The notes under the pieces: generated by a model
The model's database searches: none
Seen by the model: only the letters and a program-made list of their open reading frames with translations
What the model was told of the DNA's origin: nothing
Translations under genes and position numbers: made by a program
Source of the DNA: Kaistia hirudinis
GTDB lineage: Bacteria; Pseudomonadota; Alphaproteobacteria; Rhizobiales; Kaistiaceae
Assembly: GCF_014196455.1 (NCBI RefSeq)
Contig: NZ_JACIDS010000003.1
Location: 558,001 to 622,000 of the forward strand
Direction of reading: 5' to 3'
Length of the DNA: 64,000 nt
Shown: piece after piece, positions 10,581-21,405 of the stretch
How the letters are laid out: every line of letters begins with the position of its first letter
Position numbering within the stretch: position 1 is the first letter of the stretch

Positions 10581-10787
10581 ATGAGCGAACCGACCGAAGC
10601 CGCGGCGCCGGACGCCGAGAGGATCATCAGTCCGGCCGCAGCGCGCGCGCTGGCCGAAGCCGCGGCGCGGCGGAAGGCGATCGATGCGGCATCCAGCGGG
10701 CTTCCGCGCGAGATCCTCGGCCGCGCAGGGCCGGAGCCGATCCGCTATGGCGACTGGGAGAACAAGGGAATCGCTAGCGACTTCTGA
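10581..10787 (+). CDS. DUF1674 protein, SDHAF4-like
   Basis: A 68-residue protein whose C-terminus, [19 protein letters not shown], is the hallmark of DUF1674. This family is related to mitochondrial SDHAF4, which helps deliver FAD-loaded SdhA into succinate dehydrogenase. The N-terminal half is Ala/Glu-rich and probably disordered. It diverges from htpX (217-bp gap with no clear promoter) and converges on the SDR gene with a 29-bp gap. The family match is strong, but the assembly role in bacteria is by analogy. Confidence 0.82.
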
Positions 10788-10816
10788 CCGGCGATCCCGT
10801 TTGTTCCCGGCAGGCC

Positions 10817-11599
10817 TCAGGACATGATGAGGCCGCCATCCACATTGACCGTCTGGCCGGTGATATAGGCGGCGTCGTCGCTGGCGAGGAACGCCACGAG
10901 CCCGGCGACGTCCTCGCCCGTGCCGGCGCGGCCCATCGGGATGCCCTCGACCCATTCGGCCATCAGCTCGCCGGGCTTGTAGTCGCCGAGCAGCTTGCCC
11001 CAGGCGGTGTCGTTATAGGCCCACATGTCGGTCTCGATGATGCCGGGGCAGAAGGCATTGACGGTGATGCCCTCCTTCGCCAGTTCCTTGGCGAGGCTCT
11101 GCGTGATGCCGACGACTCCGAATTTCGAGGCGGCATAATGGGGCGTGAAGATGAAGCCCTGCCGCGCCTGGCCCGAGGCGGTGTTGATCAGCCGGCCGCC
11201 CTTTCCGTGCTTGCGGATGCGGGCGATCGCCTCCTGGCAACACAAGAAGACGCCCTTGGTGTTGACCGCCAGCACCTTGTCCCACTCGGCTTCCGTCATC
11301 GCCTCGATACGCGCAATGGTGATCACGCCGGCATTCTGGACCGAGATGTCGACGCCGCCGAAGGTCCGCTCGGCCTCGTCATAGAGCGCGGTGACGCTCG
11401 CCTTGTCGGTCACGTCGGAGACGACCGCATGCGCCTTGCCGCCCGCAGCGCGGATTTCGTCGGCGACCTCCGCGACCCGCGCCTCGTTGGCCGAGACCAC
11501 GACGGCCGCGCCTTCACGGGCGAAGCGCCGGGCGATCGCGGCGCCGATGCCGCGGCTTCCGCCGGTGATGACGACGGTCTTGCCTTCGAAACGGGTCAT
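10817..11599 (-). CDS. SDR family dehydrogenase of the sugar/polyol locus (SDR-1)
   Basis: A classical NAD(P)-dependent short-chain dehydrogenase of 260 residues with TGGSRGIG near residue 11, QNAG, the catalytic Tyr-Lys in YAASK and the C-terminal GGLIMS. The segment CPGIIETDMWAYNDTAWGKLLGDYKPG resembles acetoin/butanediol and sorbitol dehydrogenases, suggesting a polyol or ketose substrate. It lies 19 bp downstream of the SorC regulator on the same strand, so both are probably one transcript, divergent from the transketolase operon. Oxidation of a sugar alcohol to the ketose used by the FGGY kinase is plausible; the substrate cannot be read from sequence. Confidence 0.82.
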   Translation of the reverse strand: MTRFEGKTVVITGGSRGIGAAIARRFAREGAAVVVSANEARVAEVADEIRAAGGKAHAVVSDVTDKASVTALYDEAERTFGGVDISVQNAGVITIARIEAMTEAEWDKVLAVNTKGVFLCCQEAIARIRKHGKGGRLINTASGQARQGFIFTPHYAASKFGVVGITQSLAKELAKEGITVNAFCPGIIETDMWAYNDTAWGKLLGDYKPGELMAEWVEGIPMGRAGTGEDVAGLVAFLASDDAAYITGQTVNVDGGLIMS

Positions 11600-11618
11600 G
11601 GTTCCTCCACTCCAGATG

Positions 11619-12581
11619 TCAGGGAGCCGGCTGCGCGAGCAGCTTCTCCGCCGTGAACTTGTCGGTGATCAGCACGTCGACGAGCCGTCCGAGCAGCGCG
11701 GCGCGGATCGCCCGAACCTTGCGCTCGCCGCCCGCGACGCCGACGACGCGCGGCACGGCGCGGAGCTCGTCGATCGTCATGCCGATGACGCGCTCGTCGA
11801 GCGGGCCGCCAACGGCCTCGCCCTTCTCGTCGAAGAAGCGCAGGCAGACGTCGCCGACCGCGCCCCGGGCTTCGAGGTCGTGCAGCTCTTCGGAATCGAA
11901 AGTGTTGCCGGAATTGGCCAGCATGACGGAGGGTTGCAGCGCGCCGATGCCGATCAACGCCATGGTGACGCGGCGGAACTGGTTCATCGTGGCGCGGACA
12001 TAGCCGTCGCCGACCATGACGAGGCGGGCGGCGGCGGAGCCGGCGACACCCTGCGCCGGCAGGAGCATCGGCTCGGCGCTGGTCAGCGTCGCCAGTCGGG
12101 TCGTCAGCTGGGTCGCGTGGCTCTGCACGGCCGGATTGCCGATGCCGCCCAGGATCTGCACCACGCGTTCGGCGCGGGCGCGCTTCAGCGGATGGATCGC
12201 GTCCACCATGCGCAGCAGCGAGGCGCTCCAGGACGAGATCCCGATCACCTCGCCATCTGACACCGTCGTCTCGAAATAATGTCCGGCGGCGTCGCCGATG
12301 GCGCCCAGAATGGTCTCTTCCCGATCCTCGTAGCATTCGGCCACGATCGCCTCTGTCAGGGCGAAGCGTTCGCGGAGGCCCGCTTCCAGATCGGGGAAAG
12401 TGCCGCGCGGCGGCGTGATGGTGATCCGGACGATCCCTTCCTGCTCGGCGCGCTTGAGCAGCCGCGAGATGGTCGCTTGCGAGATGTGCAGCAGCGCCGA
12501 GATCTCAGCCTGCTTCATGCCATCCACATGATAGAGCTGTGCGACCCGCGTGATCAGCCTCAGCTCATAGATCCTGCTCAT
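11619..12581 (-). CDS. SorC-family transcriptional regulator
   Basis: The 320-residue protein has an N-terminal helix-turn-helix (about 23-43, QAEISALLHISQATISRLLKR) and a C-terminal SorC/DeoR sugar-binding domain ending in VLITDKFTAEKLL. Such regulators bind a phosphorylated sugar and usually repress neighbouring catabolic genes; EryD of erythritol loci is a relative. The start at 12581 has AGGGGA 9 bp upstream; a longer frame to 12659 has no site. It diverges from the transketolase/ABC operon across a 278-bp control region with a palindromic operator candidate. The effector is probably an intermediate of the pathway (inference). Confidence 0.88.
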   Translation of the reverse strand: MSRIYELRLITRVAQLYHVDGMKQAEISALLHISQATISRLLKRAEQEGIVRITITPPRGTFPDLEAGLRERFALTEAIVAECYEDREETILGAIGDAAGHYFETTVSDGEVIGISSWSASLLRMVDAIHPLKRARAERVVQILGGIGNPAVQSHATQLTTRLATLTSAEPMLLPAQGVAGSAAARLVMVGDGYVRATMNQFRRVTMALIGIGALQPSVMLANSGNTFDSEELHDLEARGAVGDVCLRFFDEKGEAVGGPLDERVIGMTIDELRAVPRVVGVAGGERKVRAIRAALLGRLVDVLITDKFTAEKLLAQPAP

Positions 12582-12661
12582 TGCGCGCCGTCCCCTGCGA
12601 CCGATCCGTGCGGCCATCTTCGATGGCCTTGAGCGGCCATTCTTTGCATTAAAATTCACAC

Positions 12662-12675
12662 CTGAAAATATCCAG
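12662..12675. promoter_or_regulatory. Second SorC operator candidate
   Basis: CTGAAAATATCCAG, read on the minus strand as CTGGATATTTTCAG, matches the centre of the main operator (CTGAATATTTATTCAG) except for one substitution and a 2-bp gap. It lies about 80 bp upstream of the sorC start, where autoregulation would act. The similarity is visible; function is inferred. Confidence 0.35.
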
Positions 12676-12770
12676 ACAGGTCGGCGCTATCGGCCATGTC
12701 GATCGATAAATGGTGCAACGCAACGCAAATTTTGGGTGCAGTGCATGCATCGACGACTCGCCAAACCAGC

Positions 12771-12799
12771 TTGACGACCATCCTATCGAGGCCTAATCT
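12771..12799 (+). promoter_or_regulatory. Promoter of the transketolase/ABC operon
   Basis: TTGACG (12771-12776), a 17-bp spacer and TAATCT (12794-12799) form the best sigma70-type promoter in the window, in a locally AT-rich stretch. Expected transcription start is near 12806, giving a leader of about 54 bases before the GTG at 12860. Four TGCA motifs between 12714 and 12749 lie just upstream and could be an activator site. Confidence 0.6.
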
Positions 12800-12813
12800 G
12801 CAAATCAATACAT

Positions 12814-12833
12814 ATCTGAATATTTATTCAGAT
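12814..12833. promoter_or_regulatory. SorC operator candidate (20-bp palindrome)
   Basis: ATCTGAATA-TT-TATTCAGAT has perfect 9-bp arms around a 2-bp centre. It begins about 8 bp after the predicted transcription start and ends 26 bp before the operon's first codon, a classical roadblock position for a repressor. The divergent SorC gene is the obvious candidate for the binding protein. Confidence 0.6.
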
Positions 12834-12859
12834 TGGACATTCGATTTTCGAGGTCGATC

Positions 12860-13726
12860 GTGTCGCTCGAGTTTTCTGCTGAAGTGCCGACGCCGGAAGG
12901 GCTGTCGAACCTCTCCCCATCCGATCGGGCCGCGCGCCTTTCGGACATTGCGCGCGCCGTGCGCCGCTCGGTCGTGCGCATGATCGACTCGGCCCGTGCC
13001 GGCCATATCGGCGGGGATCTGTCGGTCACCGACATCCTGACGACACTCTATTTCGGCGTGCTGAAGCTTGATCCGGCGGAACCGCTCGCGCCGGGCCGCG
13101 ACCGCTTCATCCTGTCCAAGGGACACTGCGCCGCCGCGCTCTATTCCGCGCTGGCGCTCCGCGGCTTCATCGATCCCGCGCTGCTCCCAACCTTCATGAA
13201 GCCGCTCTCCGTGCTCAATGGCCATCCCAATCGCCGCAAGGTCGCGGGCGTCGAGGCCAATACCGGCCCGCTCGGCCATGGCCTTCCGATTGCCGTCGGC
13301 AGCGCGATCGCCTCGTGCCTTTCGGGCCGTAACTGGCAGACCTTCGTCGTCACCGGCGACGGCGAGCTGCAGGAAGGCTCGAACTGGGAGGCGGCGATGA
13401 GCGCCGGCCATCGCGGGCTCGACAATCTCTGCGTCATCGTCGACCGCAACCGCCTGCAGCAGGGCGCGCGCACCGAGGACACCAACCGCCTCGATCCGTT
13501 GACCGACAAATGGGCGGCCTTCGGCTGGGAAGCCGTGGAGGTCGACGGCCATGATCACGCCGCGCTCTATGAGCTGTTCACGCGCCCCCGCAGCGGCAAG
13601 CCGCTCGCGATCGTCGCCAACACGCTGAAGGGCAAGGGCGTCTCCTTCATCGAGGACCGGGTCGAATGGCATCACAAGGTGCCGTCGGCCGAGCAGGTCG
13701 CTCTCGCGCTCGAGGAGCTGCGCTGA
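12860..13726 (+). CDS. Transketolase-like protein, N-terminal (TPP-binding) subunit
   Basis: A 288-residue stand-alone N-terminal half of transketolase. The thiamine-diphosphate motif begins GDGELQEGSNWEAAM and ends VIVDRN, and the family block RFILSKGHCAAALYSAL is present. The preferred start is GTG at 12860, with GAGG 6 bp upstream; an in-frame TTG at 12833 would put the start inside the operator. The stop overlaps the next gene's ATG by one base, so the two halves are made together and should form one active site. Split transketolases are used for unusual ketose phosphates (for example apulose 4-phosphate) as well as normal pentose phosphates. Here the kinase, SDRs and transporter point to a dedicated catabolic enzyme. 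Confidence 0.88.
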   Translation: MSLEFSAEVPTPEGLSNLSPSDRAARLSDIARAVRRSVVRMIDSARAGHIGGDLSVTDILTTLYFGVLKLDPAEPLAPGRDRFILSKGHCAAALYSALALRGFIDPALLPTFMKPLSVLNGHPNRRKVAGVEANTGPLGHGLPIAVGSAIASCLSGRNWQTFVVTGDGELQEGSNWEAAMSAGHRGLDNLCVIVDRNRLQQGARTEDTNRLDPLTDKWAAFGWEAVEVDGHDHAALYELFTRPRSGKPLAIVANTLKGKGVSFIEDRVEWHHKVPSAEQVALALEELR

Positions 13727-14679
13727 TGAACGCCCCCGTCGCCGCCCCGCCCGCCACCTTCGACTGCCGCCAGGCCTTCGCCGAGACGCTGATCGAACTC
13801 GCGAGGGCGGATGAGCGCATCGTCGCCGTCTGCAACGACAGCGTCGGCTCGTCCAATCTCGGTGGCTTCCAGAAGGCGTTCCCGGACCGCCTCGTCAATG
13901 TCGGCATCGCCGAGCAGAACATGGTCGGCGTCGCCGCCGGCCTTTCGAATGGCGGCTTCGTGCCGTTCGTGTGCTGCGCCTCGCCCTTCCTGACCGGCCG
14001 CGCGCTCGAACAGGTTAAAGCCGACATCGCCTATAATGGCTATCATGTCGTGCTCTGCGGCATGAGCCCGGGCATGGCCTATGGCGAGCTCGGTCCGACC
14101 CATCATTCGATCGAGGATCTTTCCTGGCTGCGCGCCATCACCGATCTCTCGATCGTGGTGCCGGCCGATCCGGCCCAGACCAGCGCGGCGGTGCGCTGGT
14201 CGGTCGAATATGGCAAGCCGTCCTTCCTCCGCGTCGGCCGCACCAAGGTGCCGTCGGTCAGCGAGGGCCAGGCGGAGCCGTTCGTCTTCGGGAAGGCCAA
14301 CCGCCTCAGGGAAGGCCGCGACCTCACGATCGTCGTGACCGGCATCCTGGTCTCCCGCGCGCTTGAGGCGGCCGAGGCGCTTGCCGCGCAGGGCATTTCG
14401 GCGCGCGTCGTCAACATCGCGACCATCGCCCCGCTCGACGAGGCGGAGATCATCGCCGCCGCCCGTGAGACCGGTGCGATCGTCACGGTCGAGGAGGCGG
14501 TCGTCAGCGGCGGCCTCGGCGCCGCGGTCGCCGAAGTGGTGGTGCGGCATCATCCGGTCGCCATGCGCCTTCTCGGCGTGCCCGGCTTCGCGCCGACCGG
14601 CGACACCGCCTTCCTGCTCGATCATTTCGGCCTCAATCGCGACGGCATCGTCCGCGCCGCGCTGGAGCTCAGGGGCTGA
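13726..14679 (+). CDS. Transketolase-like protein, C-terminal subunit
   Basis: The 317-residue partner carries the pyrimidine-binding domain, with the catalytic glutamate in VNVGIAEQNMVGVAAGLS and THHSIEDLSWLRAI, and the C-terminal transketolase domain (EEAVVSGGLGAAVAEVV). The ATG at 13726 shares its first base with the N-subunit stop codon (TGATG), the usual coupling for two-subunit transketolases. It transfers a two- or three-carbon ketol unit from a ketose phosphate to an aldose phosphate. A 1-deoxy-xylulose-5-phosphate-synthase-like role is unlikely given the context. Confidence 0.88.
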   Translation: MNAPVAAPPATFDCRQAFAETLIELARADERIVAVCNDSVGSSNLGGFQKAFPDRLVNVGIAEQNMVGVAAGLSNGGFVPFVCCASPFLTGRALEQVKADIAYNGYHVVLCGMSPGMAYGELGPTHHSIEDLSWLRAITDLSIVVPADPAQTSAAVRWSVEYGKPSFLRVGRTKVPSVSEGQAEPFVFGKANRLREGRDLTIVVTGILVSRALEAAEALAAQGISARVVNIATIAPLDEAEIIAAARETGAIVTVEEAVVSGGLGAAVAEVVVRHHPVAMRLLGVPGFAPTGDTAFLLDHFGLNRDGIVRAALELRG

Positions 14680-14681
14680 TC

Positions 14682-16154
14682 ATGCAGGCGCCGCTGCTCC
14701 TCGCCATCGACCAGGGCACGAGCTCGACCAAATGCCTCGCCGTTGACGGCGAGGGCAGGGTCGTGGCGCGCGGCCAGGCGCCGGTGAGCCAGCAGACGCC
14801 GCATCCCGGCTGGGTCGAGCAGGACGCCGAGGAGATCTGGGCGAGCGTCCGGGCCGCCGTGGCCGCGACGCTGACGGAAGAACTGGCCGCGCGGGTGGTC
14901 GCCGTCGGCCTCTCGACGCAGCGCGAGAGCTGCGTCATCTGGGATCGCAAGACGGGCGCGCCGCTGACACCGGTGCTCTCCTGGCAGGACCAGCGCACCG
15001 AACCGCTCTGCGAGGTGCTGCGCGCCGACGGTCACGACGCGCTGATCCGCGCGCGCAGCGGCCTGCCGCTCGATCCGATGTTCTCGGCCGTCAAGGCGAA
15101 GTGGCTGCTCGACCGGATCGATCCTGACCGGCGCCGCGCCGAGGCCGGCGAACTCGTCATCGGCACGATCGACAGCTTCCTCGTCTCGCGCTTCGGCGGC
15201 GAGCCGGTCGTCGAGGCCGGCAATGCCTCGCGCATGCAACTCGTCGATGTCGCGCGCGCCGCCTATGACGACGATCTCCTGCGCATCTTCGCCGTCCCGC
15301 GTGCCGCGCTGCCGCGGATCGTGCCGTCCACCGGCCCGTTCCCGGCGGTGAAGGGGCTGGCGCCGCTGCCTGATGGCGTGCCGCTCGCCGCGGTCATGGC
15401 CGACAGCCATTCGGCGCTCTTCGCCCATGGCGCCTTCGCGCCGGGTCCGGTCAAGGCGACGCAAGGCACGGGTTCGTCCGTCATGGGCCTGCTGGCCGGC
15501 ACGGGCGCCGAGGCGGCTGAGCGGCTGCATCCGGGCGTGTGCCTCACGATCGCCTGGTGGATCGACGCGCCGATGCTCGCCTTCGAGGGCAATATCCGGT
15601 CGGCCGGCTCCACGCTGATCTGGGCGGCCGAACTGCTCGGCATCGATCCGGCGGAGCTTGCCCGCCTCGCGGCGAGCGTCGATGACGCCGGCAACGTCCA
15701 TCTCGTGCCCGGCTTCAACGGCCTTGGCGCACCCTGGTGGGACGGCGCGGCCGTCGCGACGCTGTCCGGATTCACGCTCGGATCCGGCCGGGCTGCCGTC
15801 GCCCGCGCGGCGCTCGATTCGATCGCGCACCAGATCGCCGACGTGCTGGACGCGGTCCGGGCGAGCGGCGTTCCGGTCGATCGTCTGCATGTCGATGGCG
15901 GCCCGACCCGCAACGACCAGCTGATGCAGTTCGAGGCCGACATGACCGGCCTGACGGTCGCGCGCACCGATACGGCCGAGCTTTCCGCGCTCGGTGTGGC
16001 GCATCTGGCAGGCCTCGCGGCCGGGCTTTTCACGATCGACGGCCTCGCGCGGCTCGACCGCGGCGGGACGGAATTCGCGCCGGCGATCGATGCCGCGTCG
16101 CGCGCCGCCAAGCGGGCGGGCTGGGCGAGGGCGCTCGCGCGCTCGAGGAGCTGA
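14682..16154 (+). CDS. FGGY-family carbohydrate kinase
   Basis: A 490-residue ATP-dependent sugar kinase. The N-terminal domain begins LLAIDQGTSSTKCLAVD and includes GWVEQDAEEIW, glycerol-kinase-like. The C-terminal half has GTGSS, VPGFNGLGAPWWD and DGGPTRNDQLMQ. The gene starts 2 bp after the transketolase C-subunit stop. It should phosphorylate the ketose made by one of the SDRs, supplying the phosphorylated substrate of the split transketolase. Candidate substrates include apulose, erythrulose, xylulose or another ketose; glycerol is less likely beside a transketolase. Specificity cannot be fixed from sequence. Confidence 0.87.
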   Translation: MQAPLLLAIDQGTSSTKCLAVDGEGRVVARGQAPVSQQTPHPGWVEQDAEEIWASVRAAVAATLTEELAARVVAVGLSTQRESCVIWDRKTGAPLTPVLSWQDQRTEPLCEVLRADGHDALIRARSGLPLDPMFSAVKAKWLLDRIDPDRRRAEAGELVIGTIDSFLVSRFGGEPVVEAGNASRMQLVDVARAAYDDDLLRIFAVPRAALPRIVPSTGPFPAVKGLAPLPDGVPLAAVMADSHSALFAHGAFAPGPVKATQGTGSSVMGLLAGTGAEAAERLHPGVCLTIAWWIDAPMLAFEGNIRSAGSTLIWAAELLGIDPAELARLAASVDDAGNVHLVPGFNGLGAPWWDGAAVATLSGFTLGSGRAAVARAALDSIAHQIADVLDAVRASGVPVDRLHVDGGPTRNDQLMQFEADMTGLTVARTDTAELSALGVAHLAGLAAGLFTIDGLARLDRGGTEFAPAIDAASRAAKRAGWARALARSRS

Positions 16155-16224
16155 CCGGACGCCGCCAGGCGGACGGAAGGATACGACCGGGCGAGCGAGA
16201 CCCGGCGGGAGAGGAGGAGAGGCA

Positions 16225-17211
16225 ATGATGGCCGTGACGTCCGAGACTGCACGAGTGGAGACGAAGCGTCGGCGGTTCAGCCTCGGCGGCGGCGCGACCG
16301 GGCCGTTCATCGGCCTGATCGCGATGTGCATCTTCCTGTCCCTCGCGACCGACACCTTCTTCTCGGTGCGGAATTTCCTCAACGTGATGGACCAGGTCAC
16401 GGTGATCGGCGTCATGGCGATCGGCATGACCCTGGTGATCCTGATCGGCGGCATCGACCTGTCCGTCGGTTCGGTCCTGGCCCTCTCCGCGATGGTGATG
16501 GGCTTCCTCGGCAATACGATCGGTCTGCCCTTCGGCGTCGCGATCCTGGCTGCCCTGCTTGCGGCGGCGCTGTGCGGGACGGTCTCGGGGCTGATGATCA
16601 CGCAGCTCAACATGCCGCCCTTCATCGCCACGCTGGCGATGATGTCGATCGCGCGCGGCATCGCCTCCATCATCACGGATGGCGAGCAGATCGTCGGCTT
16701 CCCCGACTGGTTCTCCAACCTGGCGATTATCCGCTATGGCGGCTTCCTGAGCGCGACCGTCGCGACCATGATCGTGCTCGCCTTCGCGTTCTGGGTGTTC
16801 CTGCGCTTCCGCCCGGCCGGTCGCGCGCTCTATGCGATCGGCGGCAGCCCCGAGGTTGCCCGCCTCGCCGGTATCCGAGTCAAGGCCGTGACGGTCCGGG
16901 TCTACATGGTGTCCGGCCTGCTCGCCGGCCTCGCCGGCGTCATCCTGTCCGCGCGCCTCGACAGCGCCCAGCCGAGTTCCGGCCTCGGCTACGAACTCGA
17001 CACCATCGCCGCTGTCGTGATCGGCGGCGCCAGCCTCGCAGGCGGCGTCGGCGGCATTGCCGGCACGGCCGTCGGCGTCCTGATCATCGGCTTCCTGCGC
17101 AACGGCCTCAATCTCCTGCACGTCTCTCCCTTCGTGCAGCAGGTCGTCATCGGCGTGGTCATTGCGCTCGCCGTCGCCGCCGACACGCTGAGGAGCCGCC
17201 GTCGGCACTGA
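16225..17211 (+). CDS. Ribose-type sugar ABC transporter permease
   Basis: A 328-residue BPD_transp_2 permease (RbsC/XylH type) with about 8-10 hydrophobic segments and the family signatures GMTLVILIGGIDLSVGSVLA, RPAGRALYAIGGSPEVARLAGI and VVIGGASLAGGVGG. It would form a homodimeric inner-membrane channel. A GAGGAGG site 7 bp upstream selects the ATG at 16225. The order permease, binding protein, ATPase differs from the common binding protein, ATPase, permease order. A small carbohydrate or polyol is the likely cargo. Confidence 0.9.
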   Translation: MMAVTSETARVETKRRRFSLGGGATGPFIGLIAMCIFLSLATDTFFSVRNFLNVMDQVTVIGVMAIGMTLVILIGGIDLSVGSVLALSAMVMGFLGNTIGLPFGVAILAALLAAALCGTVSGLMITQLNMPPFIATLAMMSIARGIASIITDGEQIVGFPDWFSNLAIIRYGGFLSATVATMIVLAFAFWVFLRFRPAGRALYAIGGSPEVARLAGIRVKAVTVRVYMVSGLLAGLAGVILSARLDSAQPSSGLGYELDTIAAVVIGGASLAGGVGGIAGTAVGVLIIGFLRNGLNLLHVSPFVQQVVIGVVIALAVAADTLRSRRRH

Positions 17212-17276
17212 ACAAGGCCGGCGCGGCGATCGAGCCGCTGCCGGATGGAGGAATTCGGGCGGCCTGCCGTCCGAGA

Positions 17277-17299
17277 CGTTTCGCCCGAAAGGCGAGACG
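17277..17299 (+). other. Intercistronic hairpin before the binding-protein gene
   Basis: The arms CGTTTCGCC and GGCGAGACG (one G-U pair) enclose a CGAAA loop in the 160-bp gap between permease and binding protein. There is no U-run. It may protect the downstream high-abundance mRNA segment from decay, as seen in other binding-protein operons (inference). Confidence 0.4.
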
Positions 17300-17371
17300 G
17301 AGGCCCCGGAGGGGGTCGCACCGAACGCAGCCGGCCCAAAGTCCGGCGGCGCCCAACCCTGGAGGAGAAAC

Positions 17372-18310
17372 ATGTTCACTCGTCGTACCACGCTTCTGGC
17401 CGCCGCCGCGGCCTTCGCGCTCACCGCCACGATGGGCGTCGCCGACGCCAAGGAGGCCAAGAAGATCGGTCTCGCCGTCGCCAATCTGCAGGCCAATTTC
17501 TTCAATCAGATCAAGCAGTCGGTTGAAGCGTACGGCAAGGAGAAGGGCCTCGAGGTCATCACCGTCGACGCCAAGGGCGACGCGGCGACGCAGGTCAGCC
17601 AGATCCAGGATCTGCTGGCGCAGAACGTCGACGCGCTGATCTACATCCCAGCCGGCGCGACCGCCGCCGCCGTTCCGGTCAAGGCCGCCCGCGCTGCCGG
17701 CGTCCCGGTCGTAAACATCGACCGCAATGCGGAAGGTTCGCCCGGCGACACCTTCATCGCCACCGACAGCGTCACCTCGGCCAAGCAGGTATGCGACTAT
17801 CTGGCCAAGCAGGCTGGCGGTAAGGGCGAGATGGTCATCGTCCACGGCCAGAAGGGCACCACGCCCGAGGTCGATCGCTCCAAGGGCTGCGCCGAGGCGC
17901 TCAAGGGCTATCCGGACATCAAGGTCGTCGGCGAGCTGTGGTCGGAAGGCTGGCATCAGGACGAGGGCTTCAAGCTGACCTCGGACCTGCTGCAGTCGAA
18001 CCCGAATGTCAGCATCATCTTCGCCCAGGCCGACGCGCTCGCGCTCGGCGCCGCCCAGGCGGTGAAAGTAGCCAATTCCGGCCACCGGATCTTCATCGGC
18101 GGCTTCGACGGCGACACGGCCGCTCTGACGGCGCTGAAGGACGGCGTGTTCGACGTGACGGCGACCCAGCAGACCCAGAAGATGGGCCGGCTCGGCGTCG
18201 ATGCGGCGATCGCGCTCGTCGCGGGCGAGAAGCTCCCGGCCGAGCAGCTTCAGGACGCGACGCTGACGACGAAGGAAAACGTCGACCAGTTCATCGCCAA
18301 CCACCCCTGA
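17372..18310 (+). CDS. Sugar ABC transporter periplasmic substrate-binding protein
   Basis: A 312-residue Peripla_BP_4 protein with a clear signal peptide (RR, then a hydrophobic core, cleavage after ADA at residue 26). Family blocks include IGLAVANLQANFFNQIKQSV, DALIYIPAGA, VPVVNIDRNA and IGGFDGDTAALTALKDG. It resembles binding proteins for ribose, xylitol and erythritol. It would capture the substrate in the periplasm and define the specificity of the whole pathway. A GGAGGAG Shine-Dalgarno precedes the ATG, and hairpins lie on both sides of the gene, consistent with expression above its neighbours. Confidence 0.9.
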   Translation: MFTRRTTLLAAAAAFALTATMGVADAKEAKKIGLAVANLQANFFNQIKQSVEAYGKEKGLEVITVDAKGDAATQVSQIQDLLAQNVDALIYIPAGATAAAVPVKAARAAGVPVVNIDRNAEGSPGDTFIATDSVTSAKQVCDYLAKQAGGKGEMVIVHGQKGTTPEVDRSKGCAEALKGYPDIKVVGELWSEGWHQDEGFKLTSDLLQSNPNVSIIFAQADALALGAAQAVKVANSGHRIFIGGFDGDTAALTALKDGVFDVTATQQTQKMGRLGVDAAIALVAGEKLPAEQLQDATLTTKENVDQFIANHP

Positions 18311-18333
18311 CGCGTATCCGCGCCAAGCACGAT

Positions 18334-18361
18334 GAGGGACGGCGCCCAGGCGCCGTTCCTC
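18334..18361 (+). other. Strong hairpin after the binding-protein gene
   Basis: GAGGGACGGCGCC (18334-18346) pairs with GGCGCCGTTCCTC (18349-18361), 13 bp with a single G-U, starting 24 bases after the stop. No U-run follows, so it is better read as an mRNA-stabilising or attenuating element between the binding-protein and ATPase genes than as a full terminator. Confidence 0.5.
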
Positions 18362-18419
18362 AGGATCCGGCCGGCCTGTCACCTCGCCGGCGGCGGACAT
18401 TTCAATCGAGGCCAACGCG

Positions 18420-19928
18420 ATGACGGTTTCCTCCCCCTCTCCCGACCGCGATGTCGTGCTGCAGCTCCGGGGCATCGGCAAGACTTACGAGCCGGTGACC
18501 GTGCTGCGTAACCTCGATCTGGATGTGCGCCGCGGCGAGGTGCTGGCGCTGCTCGGCGAGAACGGCGCCGGCAAGTCGACGGCTTCGTCGATCATCGCCG
18601 GTCTCGTCCGCCCGACGGTCGGCACGATGACATGGCAGGGCGCGCCCTATGCGCCGGCGAGTCCCGCTGATGCCCTCTCCGCCGGCATCGGGCTGATCCA
18701 TCAGGAGATGCGGCTGCTGCCGGATCTCTCCATCGCCGAGAACGTCTTCGTCGGTCGCCTGCCGGTGGCGGGCGGCAGGGTGGACCGGGCGCAGATGGAG
18801 CGGCGCGCTGCCCAGCAGCTGCATCGGCTCGGCCTCGACGTCTCCCCGTCCATGCTGGTGCGCGAGCTGCGCGTCGCCGCCCAGCAGCAGGTGGAGATCG
18901 CCAAGGCGCTGACGCTGAAGGCGCGGCTCCTCATCTTCGACGAGCCGACCGCGGCGCTCGGCGGCGATGAGACCGACCGCCTCTTCGAACAGATCGCCAG
19001 CCTCAAGGCCGAGGGCGTCTCCTTCATCTATATCAGCCACCGCCTCGACGAGATCGCGCTGATCGCCGATCGCGTCGCCGTCCTCCGTGATGGCGAACTG
19101 GTCGCGACGCATGAGACGGCCCAGGTCCCGGTGAAGCGGCTGGTCGAGGACATGGTGGGCCGCCCGCTCGACCGCATGTTCCCGGCGATCCAGTCGATCG
19201 AGGGCGGCGCGACCCGCATCGAGGTCGAGGGCCTGACCGGTGTCGATGGTGCCTTCTCCGATGTCAGCTTCGCGGTCCGGGCCGGCGAGGTGTTCGGCAT
19301 CGCCGGCATCGTCGGCGCGGGCCGCACCGAGCTGGTTCGTGCGATTGCCGGGGCTGATCCGGTCGTCTCGGGCACGGTCAAGGTCGACGGAGTGCCTGTG
19401 CATCCCGGCGATCCCCGCGCGGCGCTCGACCAGGGCATCGTGCTGGTTCCGGAGGATCGCAAGGCGCAGGGCGTGCTGCTCGACCACACCATCGCCGACA
19501 ATATCGCGCTCGGAAACTATCCGCGCGTCGCGCCGTCCGGCTGGGTCCGGCCGGCGGCGGTGGAGCGTTTCGCCGAGGCGGCGATCAAGCGTTTCGGCAT
19601 CAAGGGGCGCGGCGGCCAGCTCGCGCGCCAGCTCTCCGGCGGCAATCAGCAGAAGGTCGTGATCGCGAAGTCGATCTCGCGCCAGCCGCGGGTCGTCATC
19701 CTGGACGAGCCGACGCGCGGCATCGACGTCGGCGCCCGCGCCGCGATCTACGATGTCATCGCCGAGCTGGCGCGAGAGGGCCTGGCGGTGATCGTCGTCA
19801 GCTCCGATCTCGACGAGGTGCTCGGCCTGTCGCATCGGATCATGGTGCTGAATCGGGGCCGGAACCGCGGCATTCTCGGACACGAGGCCGCCGGCCGGAT
19901 TGAAGTGATGGAACTGGCCACGACCTGA
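18420..19928 (+). CDS. Sugar ABC transporter ATP-binding protein (two NBDs)
   Basis: A 502-residue fused double ATPase of the RbsA/XylG type. NBD1 has Walker A GENGAGKST (46-54) and Walker B LLIFDEPTAALGG, but its signature is the variant ELRVAAQQQ. NBD2 has a degenerate Walker A (GIVGAGRTEL), an intact LSGGNQQK signature and VVILDEPTRGIDVGA. This asymmetry is normal for the family. It energises import through the upstream permease. It completes the transporter and lies 22 bp before SDR-2. Confidence 0.9.
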   Translation: MTVSSPSPDRDVVLQLRGIGKTYEPVTVLRNLDLDVRRGEVLALLGENGAGKSTASSIIAGLVRPTVGTMTWQGAPYAPASPADALSAGIGLIHQEMRLLPDLSIAENVFVGRLPVAGGRVDRAQMERRAAQQLHRLGLDVSPSMLVRELRVAAQQQVEIAKALTLKARLLIFDEPTAALGGDETDRLFEQIASLKAEGVSFIYISHRLDEIALIADRVAVLRDGELVATHETAQVPVKRLVEDMVGRPLDRMFPAIQSIEGGATRIEVEGLTGVDGAFSDVSFAVRAGEVFGIAGIVGAGRTELVRAIAGADPVVSGTVKVDGVPVHPGDPRAALDQGIVLVPEDRKAQGVLLDHTIADNIALGNYPRVAPSGWVRPAAVERFAEAAIKRFGIKGRGGQLARQLSGGNQQKVVIAKSISRQPRVVILDEPTRGIDVGARAAIYDVIAELAREGLAVIVVSSDLDEVLGLSHRIMVLNRGRNRGILGHEAAGRIEVMELATT

Positions 19929-19950
19929 GCGTGGCGCGAAGGAGACGGAC

Positions 19951-20715
19951 ATGAACCTGTTCAGCCTCGAGGGCGAGATCGCGCTGGTCACCGGCGGCGG
20001 CAGCGGCATCGGCCAGAGCATCGCGATCGGTCTCGCCAAGGCGGGCGCCGACGTCGCAATCTTCGACATGCCGACCAGCCCGGGCGTCGCCGACACCGTC
20101 GCGGCGATCGAAGCGACCGGGCGGCGTGCCTTTGTCACGGCAGGGACGGTCACCGAGGCGGCCGACATCGCCTCGGCGGTGGAGAGGATCGAGGCAGAGT
20201 TCGGCGCCCTGTCGATCGCCGTCAACTCAGCGGGCATCGCCAATGCCGCCCCGGCCGAGGATCTGCCGCTGGCGCAGTGGCAGCGCATGATCGACGTCAA
20301 TCTGACCGGCGTGTTCCTGTCCTGCCAGGCCGAGGGGCGGGCCATGCTGAAGCGCGGCCGGGGCGCGATCGTCAACATCGCGTCCATGTCGGGCTCGATC
20401 GTCAATCGCGGCCTGACCCAGGCGCACTACAACGCCTCCAAGGCGGGCGTCGTGCACCTCTCGAAGAGCCTCGCCATGGAGTGGGTCGAGAAGGGTATCC
20501 GCGTCAATGTGATCAGCCCCGGCTACACGCTGACGCCCATGAACCTCCGTCCCGAGGTCGCCGAGCAGCGCAAGATCTTCGAGCGCGAGACGCCGATGCA
20601 GCGCATGGCTGTGCCCGATGAGATGGTCGGCCCGGCGGTGTTCCTGCTCAGTCGTGCGGCGTCCTATGTCACCGGCGTCGACCTCCTGGTCGATGGCGGT
20701 TTCGAGTGCTGGTGA
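19951..20715 (+). CDS. SDR family dehydrogenase ending the operon (SDR-2)
   Basis: A 254-residue short-chain dehydrogenase with TGGGSGIG, NSAG, catalytic Tyr-Lys in YNASK and C-terminal VDGGFECW. The C-terminal pattern (SPGYTLTPMNLRPEV) resembles D-arabinitol and D-threitol/sorbitol-type polyol dehydrogenases. As the last gene of the transketolase/kinase/ABC operon it probably oxidises the imported polyol, or interconverts ketose and polyol, using NAD(P). Having two SDRs in one locus suggests two successive redox steps or two related substrates. Only 6 bp separate its stop from that of the convergent kdpE. Confidence 0.84.
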   Translation: MNLFSLEGEIALVTGGGSGIGQSIAIGLAKAGADVAIFDMPTSPGVADTVAAIEATGRRAFVTAGTVTEAADIASAVERIEAEFGALSIAVNSAGIANAAPAEDLPLAQWQRMIDVNLTGVFLSCQAEGRAMLKRGRGAIVNIASMSGSIVNRGLTQAHYNASKAGVVHLSKSLAMEWVEKGIRVNVISPGYTLTPMNLRPEVAEQRKIFERETPMQRMAVPDEMVGPAVFLLSRAASYVTGVDLLVDGGFECW

Positions 20716-20721
20716 CCGGCC

Positions 20722-21405
20722 TCATTCCCCGGCGCGGTAGCCGACGCCGGGTTCCGTGACGATCAGCTTCGGATTGACCGGGTCGGCCTCGAGCTTCGCA
20801 CGGAGCTGGCCGACATAGACGCGCAGATATTGCGTGTCGTGCTCATGGGCCGGCCCCCAGACCTCGCGCAGGATCTGGCGATGCGTCACGACGCGGCCGG
20901 CATGGCGGGCGAGGAAGGCGAGCAGGTCGAATTCCTTCGGCGTTAGCTTCACCTCCGCACCGTCGCGGACGACGCGATGGCGCGGCAGGTCGATCTCGAT
21001 CGGTCCGAGCCGCAGCACCGGCGTTTCGACCGTCGCGCGGGCATGGTGCCGGAGCGCCGCCCTCAGGCGCGCCATCAGCTCGCCCATGCTGAAGGGCTTG
21101 TTCACGAAATCGTCGGCGCCAAGATCCAGCGCCTCGATCTTCTCGGCATCGCGATCGCGCGCGGAGAGCACGACGATCGGCGTATCGGTCCAGCCGCGGA
21201 GGCGCCGGATCACCTCCTTGCCGTCCATGTCGGGCAGGCCGAGGTCCAGAATGACGATCTCGGGCCGGCGGCTCGCGGTCATCGCGATCGCCTCGGCTCC
21301 GTTCTCGGCCTTCAGCGCCTCATAGCCATTCGCGACCAGCGCAGGCGCCATGAAGCGATGGATCGCCGGCTCGTCATCGACCACGAGCACCCGCGGCAGC
21401 TGCAT
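20722..21405 (-). CDS. kdpE: KDP operon response regulator KdpE
   Basis: A 227-residue OmpR-family response regulator. The receiver domain has the paired acidics VVDDE, the phospho-acceptor Asp in VILDLGLPDMDG and the Lys in DDFVNKPF. A winged-helix C-terminal domain follows (VRDGAEVKLTPKEFDLLAFLARHAG). It activates kdpFABC in response to low external potassium or osmotic stress via KdpD. It follows kdpD with 3 bp between them and is the last gene of the kdp string. Confidence 0.95.
   Translation of the reverse strand: MQLPRVLVVDDEPAIHRFMAPALVANGYEALKAENGAEAIAMTASRRPEIVILDLGLPDMDGKEVIRRLRGWTDTPIVVLSARDRDAEKIEALDLGADDFVNKPFSMGELMARLRAALRHHARATVETPVLRLGPIEIDLPRHRVVRDGAEVKLTPKEFDLLAFLARHAGRVVTHRQILREVWGPAHEHDTQYLRVYVGQLRAKLEADPVNPKLIVTEPGVGYRAGE

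What the first reader, a model, noticed from the sequence alone, without database searches (positions are those of the whole stretch)
10817..20715. Uncharacterised carbohydrate pathway: split transketolase + FGGY kinase + two SDRs + ABC importer + SorC
The locus contains everything needed to import a carbohydrate, oxidise it, phosphorylate the ketose and cleave it with a dedicated two-subunit transketolase, under its own SorC regulator. Known precedents are the non-oxidative D-apiose route (apulose kinase plus split apulose-4-phosphate transketolase) and tetritol/pentitol routes. However, no apiose isomerase, aldolase or epimerase is present, and there are two SDRs. A new polyol -> ketose -> ketose phosphate -> transketolase scheme is a reasonable hypothesis.
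Basis: partly seen in the sequence, partly recalled or inferred. Interest (0 to 1): 0.75.

Follow-up and report, generated by a model that had tools for sequence, protein, structure and literature searches.

The report
Apiose-utilisation operon without an isomerase
This bacterium carries a self-contained gene cassette that very probably imports and burns the plant cell-wall sugar apiose, using a pair of opposed dehydrogenases where better-known versions use a single isomerase.

Summary
All nine genes are present at the stated coordinates. The locus is best read as a D-apiose cassette, not a wholly new polyol pathway. Its kinase (glycerol-kinase-like, not xylulokinase-like) and split transketolase form a core found in 78 of 88 kinase-selected loci; 77 of 77 kinases compared in them share an altered active-site motif. 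Three entry modules plug into this core: a TIM-barrel isomerase, a fucose-isomerase-like protein, or the SDR pair seen here. No locus of the 78 has both SDR pair and TIM barrel. Each window SDR is 62% identical to one of two SDRs in an E. coli cluster of a type that lacks the isomerase and whose tested carriers grow on D-apiose (PMC13001218). Neither isomerase type is in the window's genome. Cofactor-site residues point in opposite directions (SDR1 mostly NADP-like, SDR2 NAD-like), suggesting apiose -> apiitol -> apulose. A palindromic operator, TGAATA-N2-TATTCA, recurs across phyla and occurs exactly once in this genome. A sister genome shows the empty site. Substrate and SDR chemistry are untested.

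The parts
10788..20723 (.). Whole inserted cassette (about 9.9 kb)
   Evidence: blastn against sister genome G004: alignment stops at window 10787 and resumes at 20724, with 38 bases between in G004
10817..11599 (-). SDR1, proposed NADPH-linked apiose reductase
   Evidence: Pfam PF13561/PF00106; 62% identical to E. coli SDRb, 68% Deinococcus, 69% Shinella; NADP-like cofactor site
11619..12659 (-). SorC-family regulator (start probably ATG 12581)
   Evidence: Pfam PF04198 Sugar-bind, 205 bits
12814..12833 (.). Palindrome ATCTGAATATTTATTCAGAT, candidate SorC operator (core 12817-12830)
   Evidence: Sequence; core within 2 mismatches upstream of transketolase N in 59 of 76 loci, 0.4 expected; exact core once in the own genome
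12833..13726 (+). Transketolase N half (AptA-like; likelier start GTG 12860)
   Evidence: Pfam PF00456; 48% identical to the E. coli cluster's
13726..14679 (+). Transketolase C half (AptB-like)
   Evidence: Pfam PF02779, PF02780; 39% identical to the E. coli cluster's; tree
14682..16154 (+). FGGY kinase of glycerol-kinase type, proposed apulose kinase
   Evidence: Pfam PF00370, PF02782; closest to glycerol kinase; M133, D241-S242-H243 motif
16225..17211 (+). ABC importer permease, ribose type
   Evidence: Pfam PF02653; best NCBIfam model is ribose permease, below cut-off
17372..18310 (+). Sugar-binding protein of the importer
   Evidence: Pfam PF13407 Peripla_BP_4; same lineage in 44 of 45 SDR-pair loci
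18420..19928 (+). ABC importer ATPase (two ATP-binding domains)
   Evidence: Pfam PF00005, two stretches
19951..20715 (+). SDR2, proposed NAD-linked apiitol 2-dehydrogenase
   Evidence: Over the cut-off of NCBIfam NF004774, an SDR family without named function; 62% identical to E. coli SDRa, 71% Deinococcus, 69% Shinella; D39 in 47 of 47

Best explanation
The locus is a SorC-controlled D-apiose operon of the transketolase type in which the apiose isomerase is replaced by two SDRs. A ribose-type ABC importer brings in apiose. SDR1 reduces it with NADPH to apiitol, and SDR2 oxidises apiitol at C2 with NAD+ to the ketose apulose. The glycerol-kinase-like FGGY enzyme phosphorylates the branched, glycerol-like end of apulose. 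The split transketolase moves the two-carbon unit to glyceraldehyde 3-phosphate, giving xylulose 5-phosphate and leaving dihydroxyacetone phosphate. Shown by calls: gene content, orthology, exchange of entry modules, cofactor-site residues, operator motif, empty site in a sister genome. Inferred: substrate, reaction order, cofactor use, regulator-operator contact and effector.
For: Both SDRs are 62% identical to the two SDRs of an E. coli cluster of the kind described in PMC13001218, which lacks apsI and whose tested carriers grow on D-apiose. SDR pair in 45 of 78 loci with the core, TIM-barrel isomerase in 20, fucose-isomerase-like alone in 4; pair and TIM barrel together in 0 of 78. Modules interleave on the transketolase tree, at least 9 changes; independent pairs 6, median p 0.031 with the 'none' loci left out. 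E. coli (SDR pair) and Klebsiella (fucose-isomerase-like) otherwise share kinase 70%, transketolase 79% and 77%, SorC 75%. In the window's own family G018 has the core at 59-62% with the isomerase-like module. Kinase motif common to 77 of 77 core-linked kinases of all module types. Cofactor residues. Operator. In Caballeronia a GolD/DthD-family dehydrogenase takes the SDR2 place. Both isomerase types absent from the genome, with working positive controls.
Against: No enzyme of the window was assayed, and the E. coli growth result does not prove the SDRs' role. The window's binding protein is only 25% identical to E. coli's and its lineage follows the SDR pair (44 of 45), so import substrates might differ. 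Three loci (L021, L032, L083) have both SDR pair and fucose-isomerase-like protein. Two loci have SDR2 without SDR1, and 7 show no entry module. The independent-pair test weakens to median p 0.0625 with the 'none' loci kept and 0.125 for the TIM barrel alone. The enterobacterial transketolases lie on a long branch, 2.35 changes per column, from the rest. SDR1 has an NAD-like Asp in 5 of 46, including L023, the window's nearest relative on the transketolase tree. No PF13204 apiosidase in the genome.
Confidence: 0.62

Rival explanations
1. Same core (apulose kinase and transketolase), but the imported substrate is a different compound that reaches apulose by dehydrogenation, such as free apiitol or another branched polyol. 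One SDR makes apulose; the other serves a second substrate or a stereo-inversion.
For: The binding-protein lineage of the window follows the SDR pair (44 of 45) and is in none of the 20 TIM-barrel and 4 fucose-isomerase-like-only loci. L032 and L083 carry both binding-protein lineages and both modules, as if two inputs met one core. SDR2's solved relatives include galactitol and polyol dehydrogenases.
Against: One oxidation of apiitol is enough, so the second SDR is left over, yet the two are kept together in 45 of 47 core loci that have SDR2. E. coli and Caballeronia combine SDR1 with the other binding-protein lineage, and E. coli strains with such a cluster grow on apiose itself.
Confidence: 0.18
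2. The core handles another ketose (for example a linear or differently branched one), and the likeness to apiose clusters reflects common descent, not common substrate.
For: Kinase and transketolase are only 39-48% identical to the E. coli cluster's, and the enterobacterial transketolases are far off on the tree.
Against: Shared kinase motif in 77 of 77, exchange of modules on one core, common operator motif, two SDRs conserved at 62% with the E. coli pair.
Confidence: 0.13
3. Apiose is used through the two SDRs, but in the other order: C2 is oxidised first to a dicarbonyl, and C1 is then reduced to give apulose.
For: Same net chemistry and the same two SDRs; nothing in the sequences fixes the order.
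Against: A reactive intermediate; the known analogue, xylose reductase with xylitol dehydrogenase, goes through the polyol (recalled); a gene annotated GolD/DthD-family dehydrogenase can hold the SDR2 place.
Confidence: 0.04

Closest known systems
E. coli / E. fergusonii D-apiose cluster without apsI (PMC13001218, J Bacteriol 2026; passages seen)
   Same: Kinase, split transketolase, SorC, ribose-type ABC importer and two SDRs; each SDR 62% identical to the window's counterpart; no isomerase. The authors already hypothesise that the two oxidoreductases replace apsI.
   Different: Binding protein only 25% identical; extra DUF2291 gene; different gene order; kinase 39%, transketolase halves 48% and 39% identical.
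D-apiose transketolase pathway with apiose isomerase (Carter et al. 2018; not held; known here by citation and recall)
   Same: Kinase plus split transketolase converting apulose to central intermediates (recalled).
   Different: Uses one isomerase; neither isomerase type is in the window or its genome.
Deinococcus gobiensis plasmid P1 cluster (L014)
   Same: The same nine genes; kinase 58%, SDRs 68% and 71%, transketolase halves 67% and 68% identical.
   Different: SorC and both SDRs lie downstream in one direction; itself uncharacterised.
Xylose reductase / xylitol dehydrogenase route of fungi (recalled)
   Same: Proposed logic: reduction with NADPH, then oxidation with NAD+, in place of an isomerase.
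   Different: Different sugar and operon context; enzyme families not compared here.

Membership tests
D-apiose transketolase pathway, isomerase (apsI) type | Split transketolase and FGGY kinase of the apiose-cluster kind | tested here: met
   Homologues in E. coli and Klebsiella clusters; kinase motif 77 of 77
D-apiose transketolase pathway, isomerase (apsI) type | An apiose isomerase in the cluster or genome | tested here: not met
   TIM barrel: best match in own genome 32% over part of the protein, while two genomes that hold it ring at 51% and 58%. Fucose-isomerase-like: none, while G018 rings at 48%. A third, unrelated isomerase cannot be excluded.
Isomerase-free D-apiose cluster (E. coli type) | Two oxidoreductases orthologous to those of E. 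coli, with kinase and split transketolase, no apsI | tested here: met
   62% identity each, against 45% and 48% for the most similar other SDRs in the own genome. Orthology rests on identity and context; no SDR tree was built.
Isomerase-free D-apiose cluster (E. coli type) | Growth on D-apiose | not testable with these tools
   Published for E. coli and E. fergusonii strains only
Xylulose/xylitol pathway | Xylulokinase-type FGGY kinase | tested here: not met
   XylB model 165.7 bits against a cut-off of 380.25; glycerol kinase model scores higher
Glycerol kinase (GlpK) | Score over the GlpK cut-off and the GlpK-type Y and D-Q-Q residues | tested here: not met
   415.7 bits against 590.35; M133 and D-S-H in the window
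SorC-family regulators | Sugar-bind domain PF04198 with an N-terminal helix-turn-helix | tested here: met
   PF04198 at 205 bits; HTH matches at residues 35-78
Erythritol/threitol pathways | Dedicated tetrulose kinases and tetrose-phosphate isomerases | not tested
   No reference set was compared; none of the nine proteins matches an isomerase or epimerase family in Pfam

The most novel reading that the evidence does not exclude
The SDR pair is a mobile redox-isomerase module: an NADPH-linked apiose reductase and an NAD-linked apiitol dehydrogenase that together replace an isomerase. It has been exchanged repeatedly, in at least three phyla, with two other entry enzymes on one conserved kinase-transketolase core under a common operator, and it moves reducing power from NADPH to NADH as it works: a bacterial counterpart of fungal xylose reductase and xylitol dehydrogenase for a branched sugar.
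Probability: 0.52. Interest if true: 0.62.

Novelty: new variant of a known kind. Interest (0 to 1): 0.5.

Why it matters
It turns an 'unknown polyol pathway' into a concrete, testable assignment and offers a mechanism for the point the 2026 E. coli study left open: how isomerase-free strains use D-apiose. The shared operator and kinase motif give a practical way to find apiose operons whatever their entry enzyme. If the paired-dehydrogenase chemistry holds, it is a clear natural case in bacteria where an isomerase and two opposed dehydrogenases are interchangeable, with consequences for predicting NADPH/NADH balance.

Tried and rejected
Xylulokinase/xylitol reading: rejected on kinase family. 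Glycerol metabolism: rejected on active-site residues and transketolase linkage. Release of apiose by the organism's own apiosidase: no PF13204 match in the genome, while the control rings in 2 of 14 genomes. Sigma-70-type promoter scan: 0 found; 2 terminator-like sites against 3.3 expected. Palindrome search by length gave much GC-rich noise besides the TGAATA family. A Pfam look at 10 ORFs beside L047, L059, L062 and L080 found no evident replacement for the missing module. Paper searches: 'split transketolase' 0 papers, 'apulose' 0, 'apiitol' 3, on other topics by title and abstract; of the other apiose searches only PMC13001218 looked directly relevant in the listings. Whether Carter et al. 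2018 already noted SDR pairs could not be checked (not held).

Row handling. Ten failed the transketolase C threshold and were left out of the 78: L042, L044, L052, L073, L075, L081, L090, L093, L096, L098. L075 (Leclercia) failed on coverage only and looks like the fucose-isomerase-like type. L063, kinase cut to 146 aa by my reading-frame step, was dropped (77 of 78). In one search, 76 loci had a usable upstream stretch. In one search the rows own_L001 to own_L010 hold wrong reading frames and are not used. In one search only the 60 listed rows of each search were compared, out of 1130, 247 and 1076 records. Several loci are near-copies (L015/L016/L057; L062/L063). Some loci end at contig ends, so 'none' may mean cut off. 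Module labels rest on tblastn thresholds I chose.
Full report
What is there. The FGGY kinase is nearer to glycerol kinase than to xylulokinase. SDR2 passes the cut-off of NCBIfam NF004774, an SDR family without a named function.

The same operon elsewhere. tblastn of the kinase against plasmid records led to Deinococcus gobiensis plasmid P1, which has all nine genes, and to related clusters in Shinella, Klebsiella, Streptomyces and Croceibacterium. The Streptomyces and Croceibacterium clusters lie among pectinesterase, GH28 and GH95 genes, which fits a pectin sugar. The Streptomyces cluster carries a xylose-isomerase-like TIM barrel whose closest PDB entry is 3ktc, labelled xylose isomerase, 426.7 bits (its Pectobacterium origin is recalled, and that this family is ApsI is inferred). 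The Klebsiella cluster carries instead a protein with a fucose-isomerase C-terminal domain.

Link to apiose. A 2026 paper (PMC13001218; passages seen) describes a D-apiose cluster in E. coli beside the enterobactin genes. It lacks the isomerase gene apsI and has two putative oxidoreductases that the authors hypothesise replace it. All strains with the cluster that they tested grew on D-apiose; K-12 did not. I fetched an E. coli cluster at that position (this strain was not among those tested). Its two oxidoreductases are SDRs, each 62% identical to one of the window's two, while its kinase is 39%, its transketolase halves 48% and 39%, and its binding protein 25% identical. In the window's own genome the most similar other SDRs reach only 45% and 48% (73 and 64 matches at E 1e-20, the queries themselves included). 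The SDR pair is thus the best-conserved part of the cassette between the two organisms. Orthology is inferred from identity and context; no SDR tree was built.

Interchangeable entry modules. Among 88 loci chosen by kinase similarity, 78 also encode the transketolase C half. Of these 78: SDR pair alone 42; SDR pair plus fucose-isomerase-like protein 3; TIM barrel alone 20; fucose-isomerase-like alone 4; SDR2 alone 2; none recognised 7. The SDR pair and the TIM barrel occur together in 0 of 78. Gene order varies between loci, yet the pair is kept. On a maximum-likelihood tree of the transketolase C half the modules interleave, with at least 9 changes among three states ('none' left out, SDR2-only and mixed loci counted as SDR). 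E. coli (SDR) groups with Klebsiella and Silvania (fucose-isomerase-like) at 100/100, and three actinobacterial SDR loci (L033, L039, L049) sit beside TIM-barrel loci on starred branches (L049 is a long branch, and the enterobacterial group itself is 2.35 changes per column from the rest, with a long-branch warning). A quick kinase tree needs 8 changes. Among phylogenetically independent pairs that differ in SDR presence, isomerase presence goes the other way in 5.8 of 6 on average (median p 0.031, range 0.031-0.125, 'none' loci left out); with them kept it is 4.6 of 7 (median p 0.0625), and for the TIM barrel alone 3.7 of 7 (0.125). In the window's own family, G018 has a kinase 61% and transketolase halves 62% and 59% identical, with the fucose-isomerase-like module and no SDR1 or SDR2 match at E 1e-20 in the 18.5 kb examined. 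The simplest reading is that the modules deliver the same ketose to one core.

Absence of an isomerase. The fucose-isomerase-like protein has no match in the own genome at E 0.001, while the same search rings in G018 at 48%. The TIM barrel has one match, 32% over residues 99-335, while genomes holding loci L045 and L036 ring at 58% and 51%. A third, unrelated isomerase is not excluded.

A check that did not start from the kinase. Plasmids were searched with SDR1, the transketolase C half and SDR2 separately, and the 60 listed rows of each compared. The 48 records in both SDR lists all have the two within 12 kb; the 41 records in both the SDR1 and transketolase lists all have these within 12 kb; so do the 38 in both the SDR2 and transketolase lists. 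Many are related rhizobia. Of four SDR1 records without a listed partner I opened two, and both have the core. In one, Caballeronia, a gene annotated GolD/DthD family dehydrogenase, 37% identical to SDR2, stands in the SDR2 place, while SDR1 is 74% identical to the window's and the binding protein 65% to E. coli's. Since DthD is a threitol dehydrogenase (recalled), this suggests that SDR2 is the polyol-to-ketose step.

How it should work. In SDR2 the acidic residue at the end of the second beta strand (D39) is invariant in 47 of 47, the usual sign of NAD. In SDR1 that position is A or S in 41 of 46 and D in 5 (L023, L033, L039, L042, L049), and a basic residue sits in the glycine motif in 45 of 46, the usual sign of NADP (the rules are recalled). 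One exception, L023, is the window's nearest relative on the transketolase tree, so the cofactor of SDR1 may change easily. An NADPH reductase with an NAD+ dehydrogenase is what one expects if apiose is reduced to apiitol and apiitol oxidised to apulose. SDR1's nearest solved relatives are diacetyl/acetoin reductases and FabG-type enzymes; SDR2's include galactitol and polyol dehydrogenases. Apulose has a branched end that is chemically a 2-substituted glycerol, which would explain a kinase derived from glycerol kinase. In line with this, 77 of 77 core-linked kinases, whatever their module, have M or L in place of the glycerol-kinase tyrosine and D-S-H in place of D-Q-Q. Of the 10 kinases in loci below the transketolase threshold, 7 have D-S-H too (two of them with the tyrosine) and 3 have D-Q-Q with the tyrosine. 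The transketolase would then give xylulose 5-phosphate and dihydroxyacetone phosphate (recalled chemistry, consistent with the structure of apulose 4-phosphate).

Regulation. The palindrome ATCTGAATATTTATTCAGAT lies at 12814-12833 between the divergent SorC and transketolase genes. Its core TGAATA-N2-TATTCA is found within two mismatches in the 400 bases upstream of the transketolase N match in 59 of 76 loci (0.4 expected from dinucleotide shuffles) and exactly in 18 of 76 (0.0 expected). The motif was chosen after seeing some of these loci, but the excess is far beyond that bias. By module: SDR pair 40 of 42, pair plus fucose-isomerase-like 3 of 3, SDR2 only 2 of 2, fucose-isomerase-like 2 of 3, none 5 of 8, TIM barrel 7 of 18. 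In the window's genome the exact core occurs at one place; one mismatch adds one other place, and the reversed control gives none. That SorC binds it is inferred.

Origin. Of 14 genomes of the genus, the window's included, one other (G005) has a kinase match at E below 1e-100, at only 42%. In G004 the flanking genes htpX and kdpE are neighbours, and the alignment to the window stops at 10787 and resumes at 20724: a clean gain or loss of about 9.9 kb. In the other relatives the best kdpE match is 47-62% and not beside htpX. G+C is 0.684 in the insert against 0.693 on both sides, so composition gives no sign of recent foreign origin.

What speaks against. No enzyme of the window has been assayed. 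The E. coli growth result does not prove the role of the SDRs. The window's binding-protein lineage follows the SDR pair (44 of 45) and differs from E. coli's, and three loci hold both the pair and a fucose-isomerase-like protein, so a different or additional imported substrate such as apiitol stays possible. The genome has no PF13204 apiosidase.

Verdict. Observation confirmed; interpretation partly supported. It works like the D-apiose transketolase pathway but is not filed under its isomerase type, because the isomerase was looked for and not found. It belongs with the isomerase-free E. coli type, whose mechanism is unproven. Added here: the SDR pair is conserved from Deinococcus to rhizobia to E. 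coli, stands in for two other entry enzymes on one core, carries mostly opposite cofactor signatures, and shares one operator motif. A new variant of a known kind, of moderate interest.

Noticed in passing
L021, L032, L083: These loci hold both the SDR pair and a fucose-isomerase-like protein; L032 and L083 also carry both binding-protein lineages, as if two inputs met one core.
   Followed up: partly
L103:1355-2152 (Caballeronia sp. M1242): A gene annotated GolD/DthD family dehydrogenase stands where SDR2 would be, beside a well-conserved SDR1 and the core.
   Followed up: partly
L027: A record titled Mycobacterium sp. KBS0706 has a cassette that groups tightly with Inquilinus limosus on the transketolase tree; the record may be misnamed or contaminated.
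   Followed up: no
L023, L033, L039, L042, L049: SDR1 has an NAD-like Asp at the cofactor site in these 5 of 46 sequences, so the pair may be NAD-only there.
   Followed up: no
G000:C2:399338-399351: The only other place in the genome within one mismatch of the operator core; its neighbours were not looked at.
   Followed up: no
L047, L059: Core and SDR2 are present without an SDR1 orthologue in the fetched stretch; five neighbouring ORFs gave no evident replacement by Pfam.
   Followed up: partly
L016, L017: The core sits inside pectin-degradation clusters (GH28, GH95, pectinesterase) in Streptomyces and Croceibacterium; the latter shows no recognised entry module.
   Followed up: no
window 12833-12860: The transketolase N start as called (TTG) overlaps the operator palindrome; GTG 12860 behind GAGG looks likelier.
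   Followed up: partly
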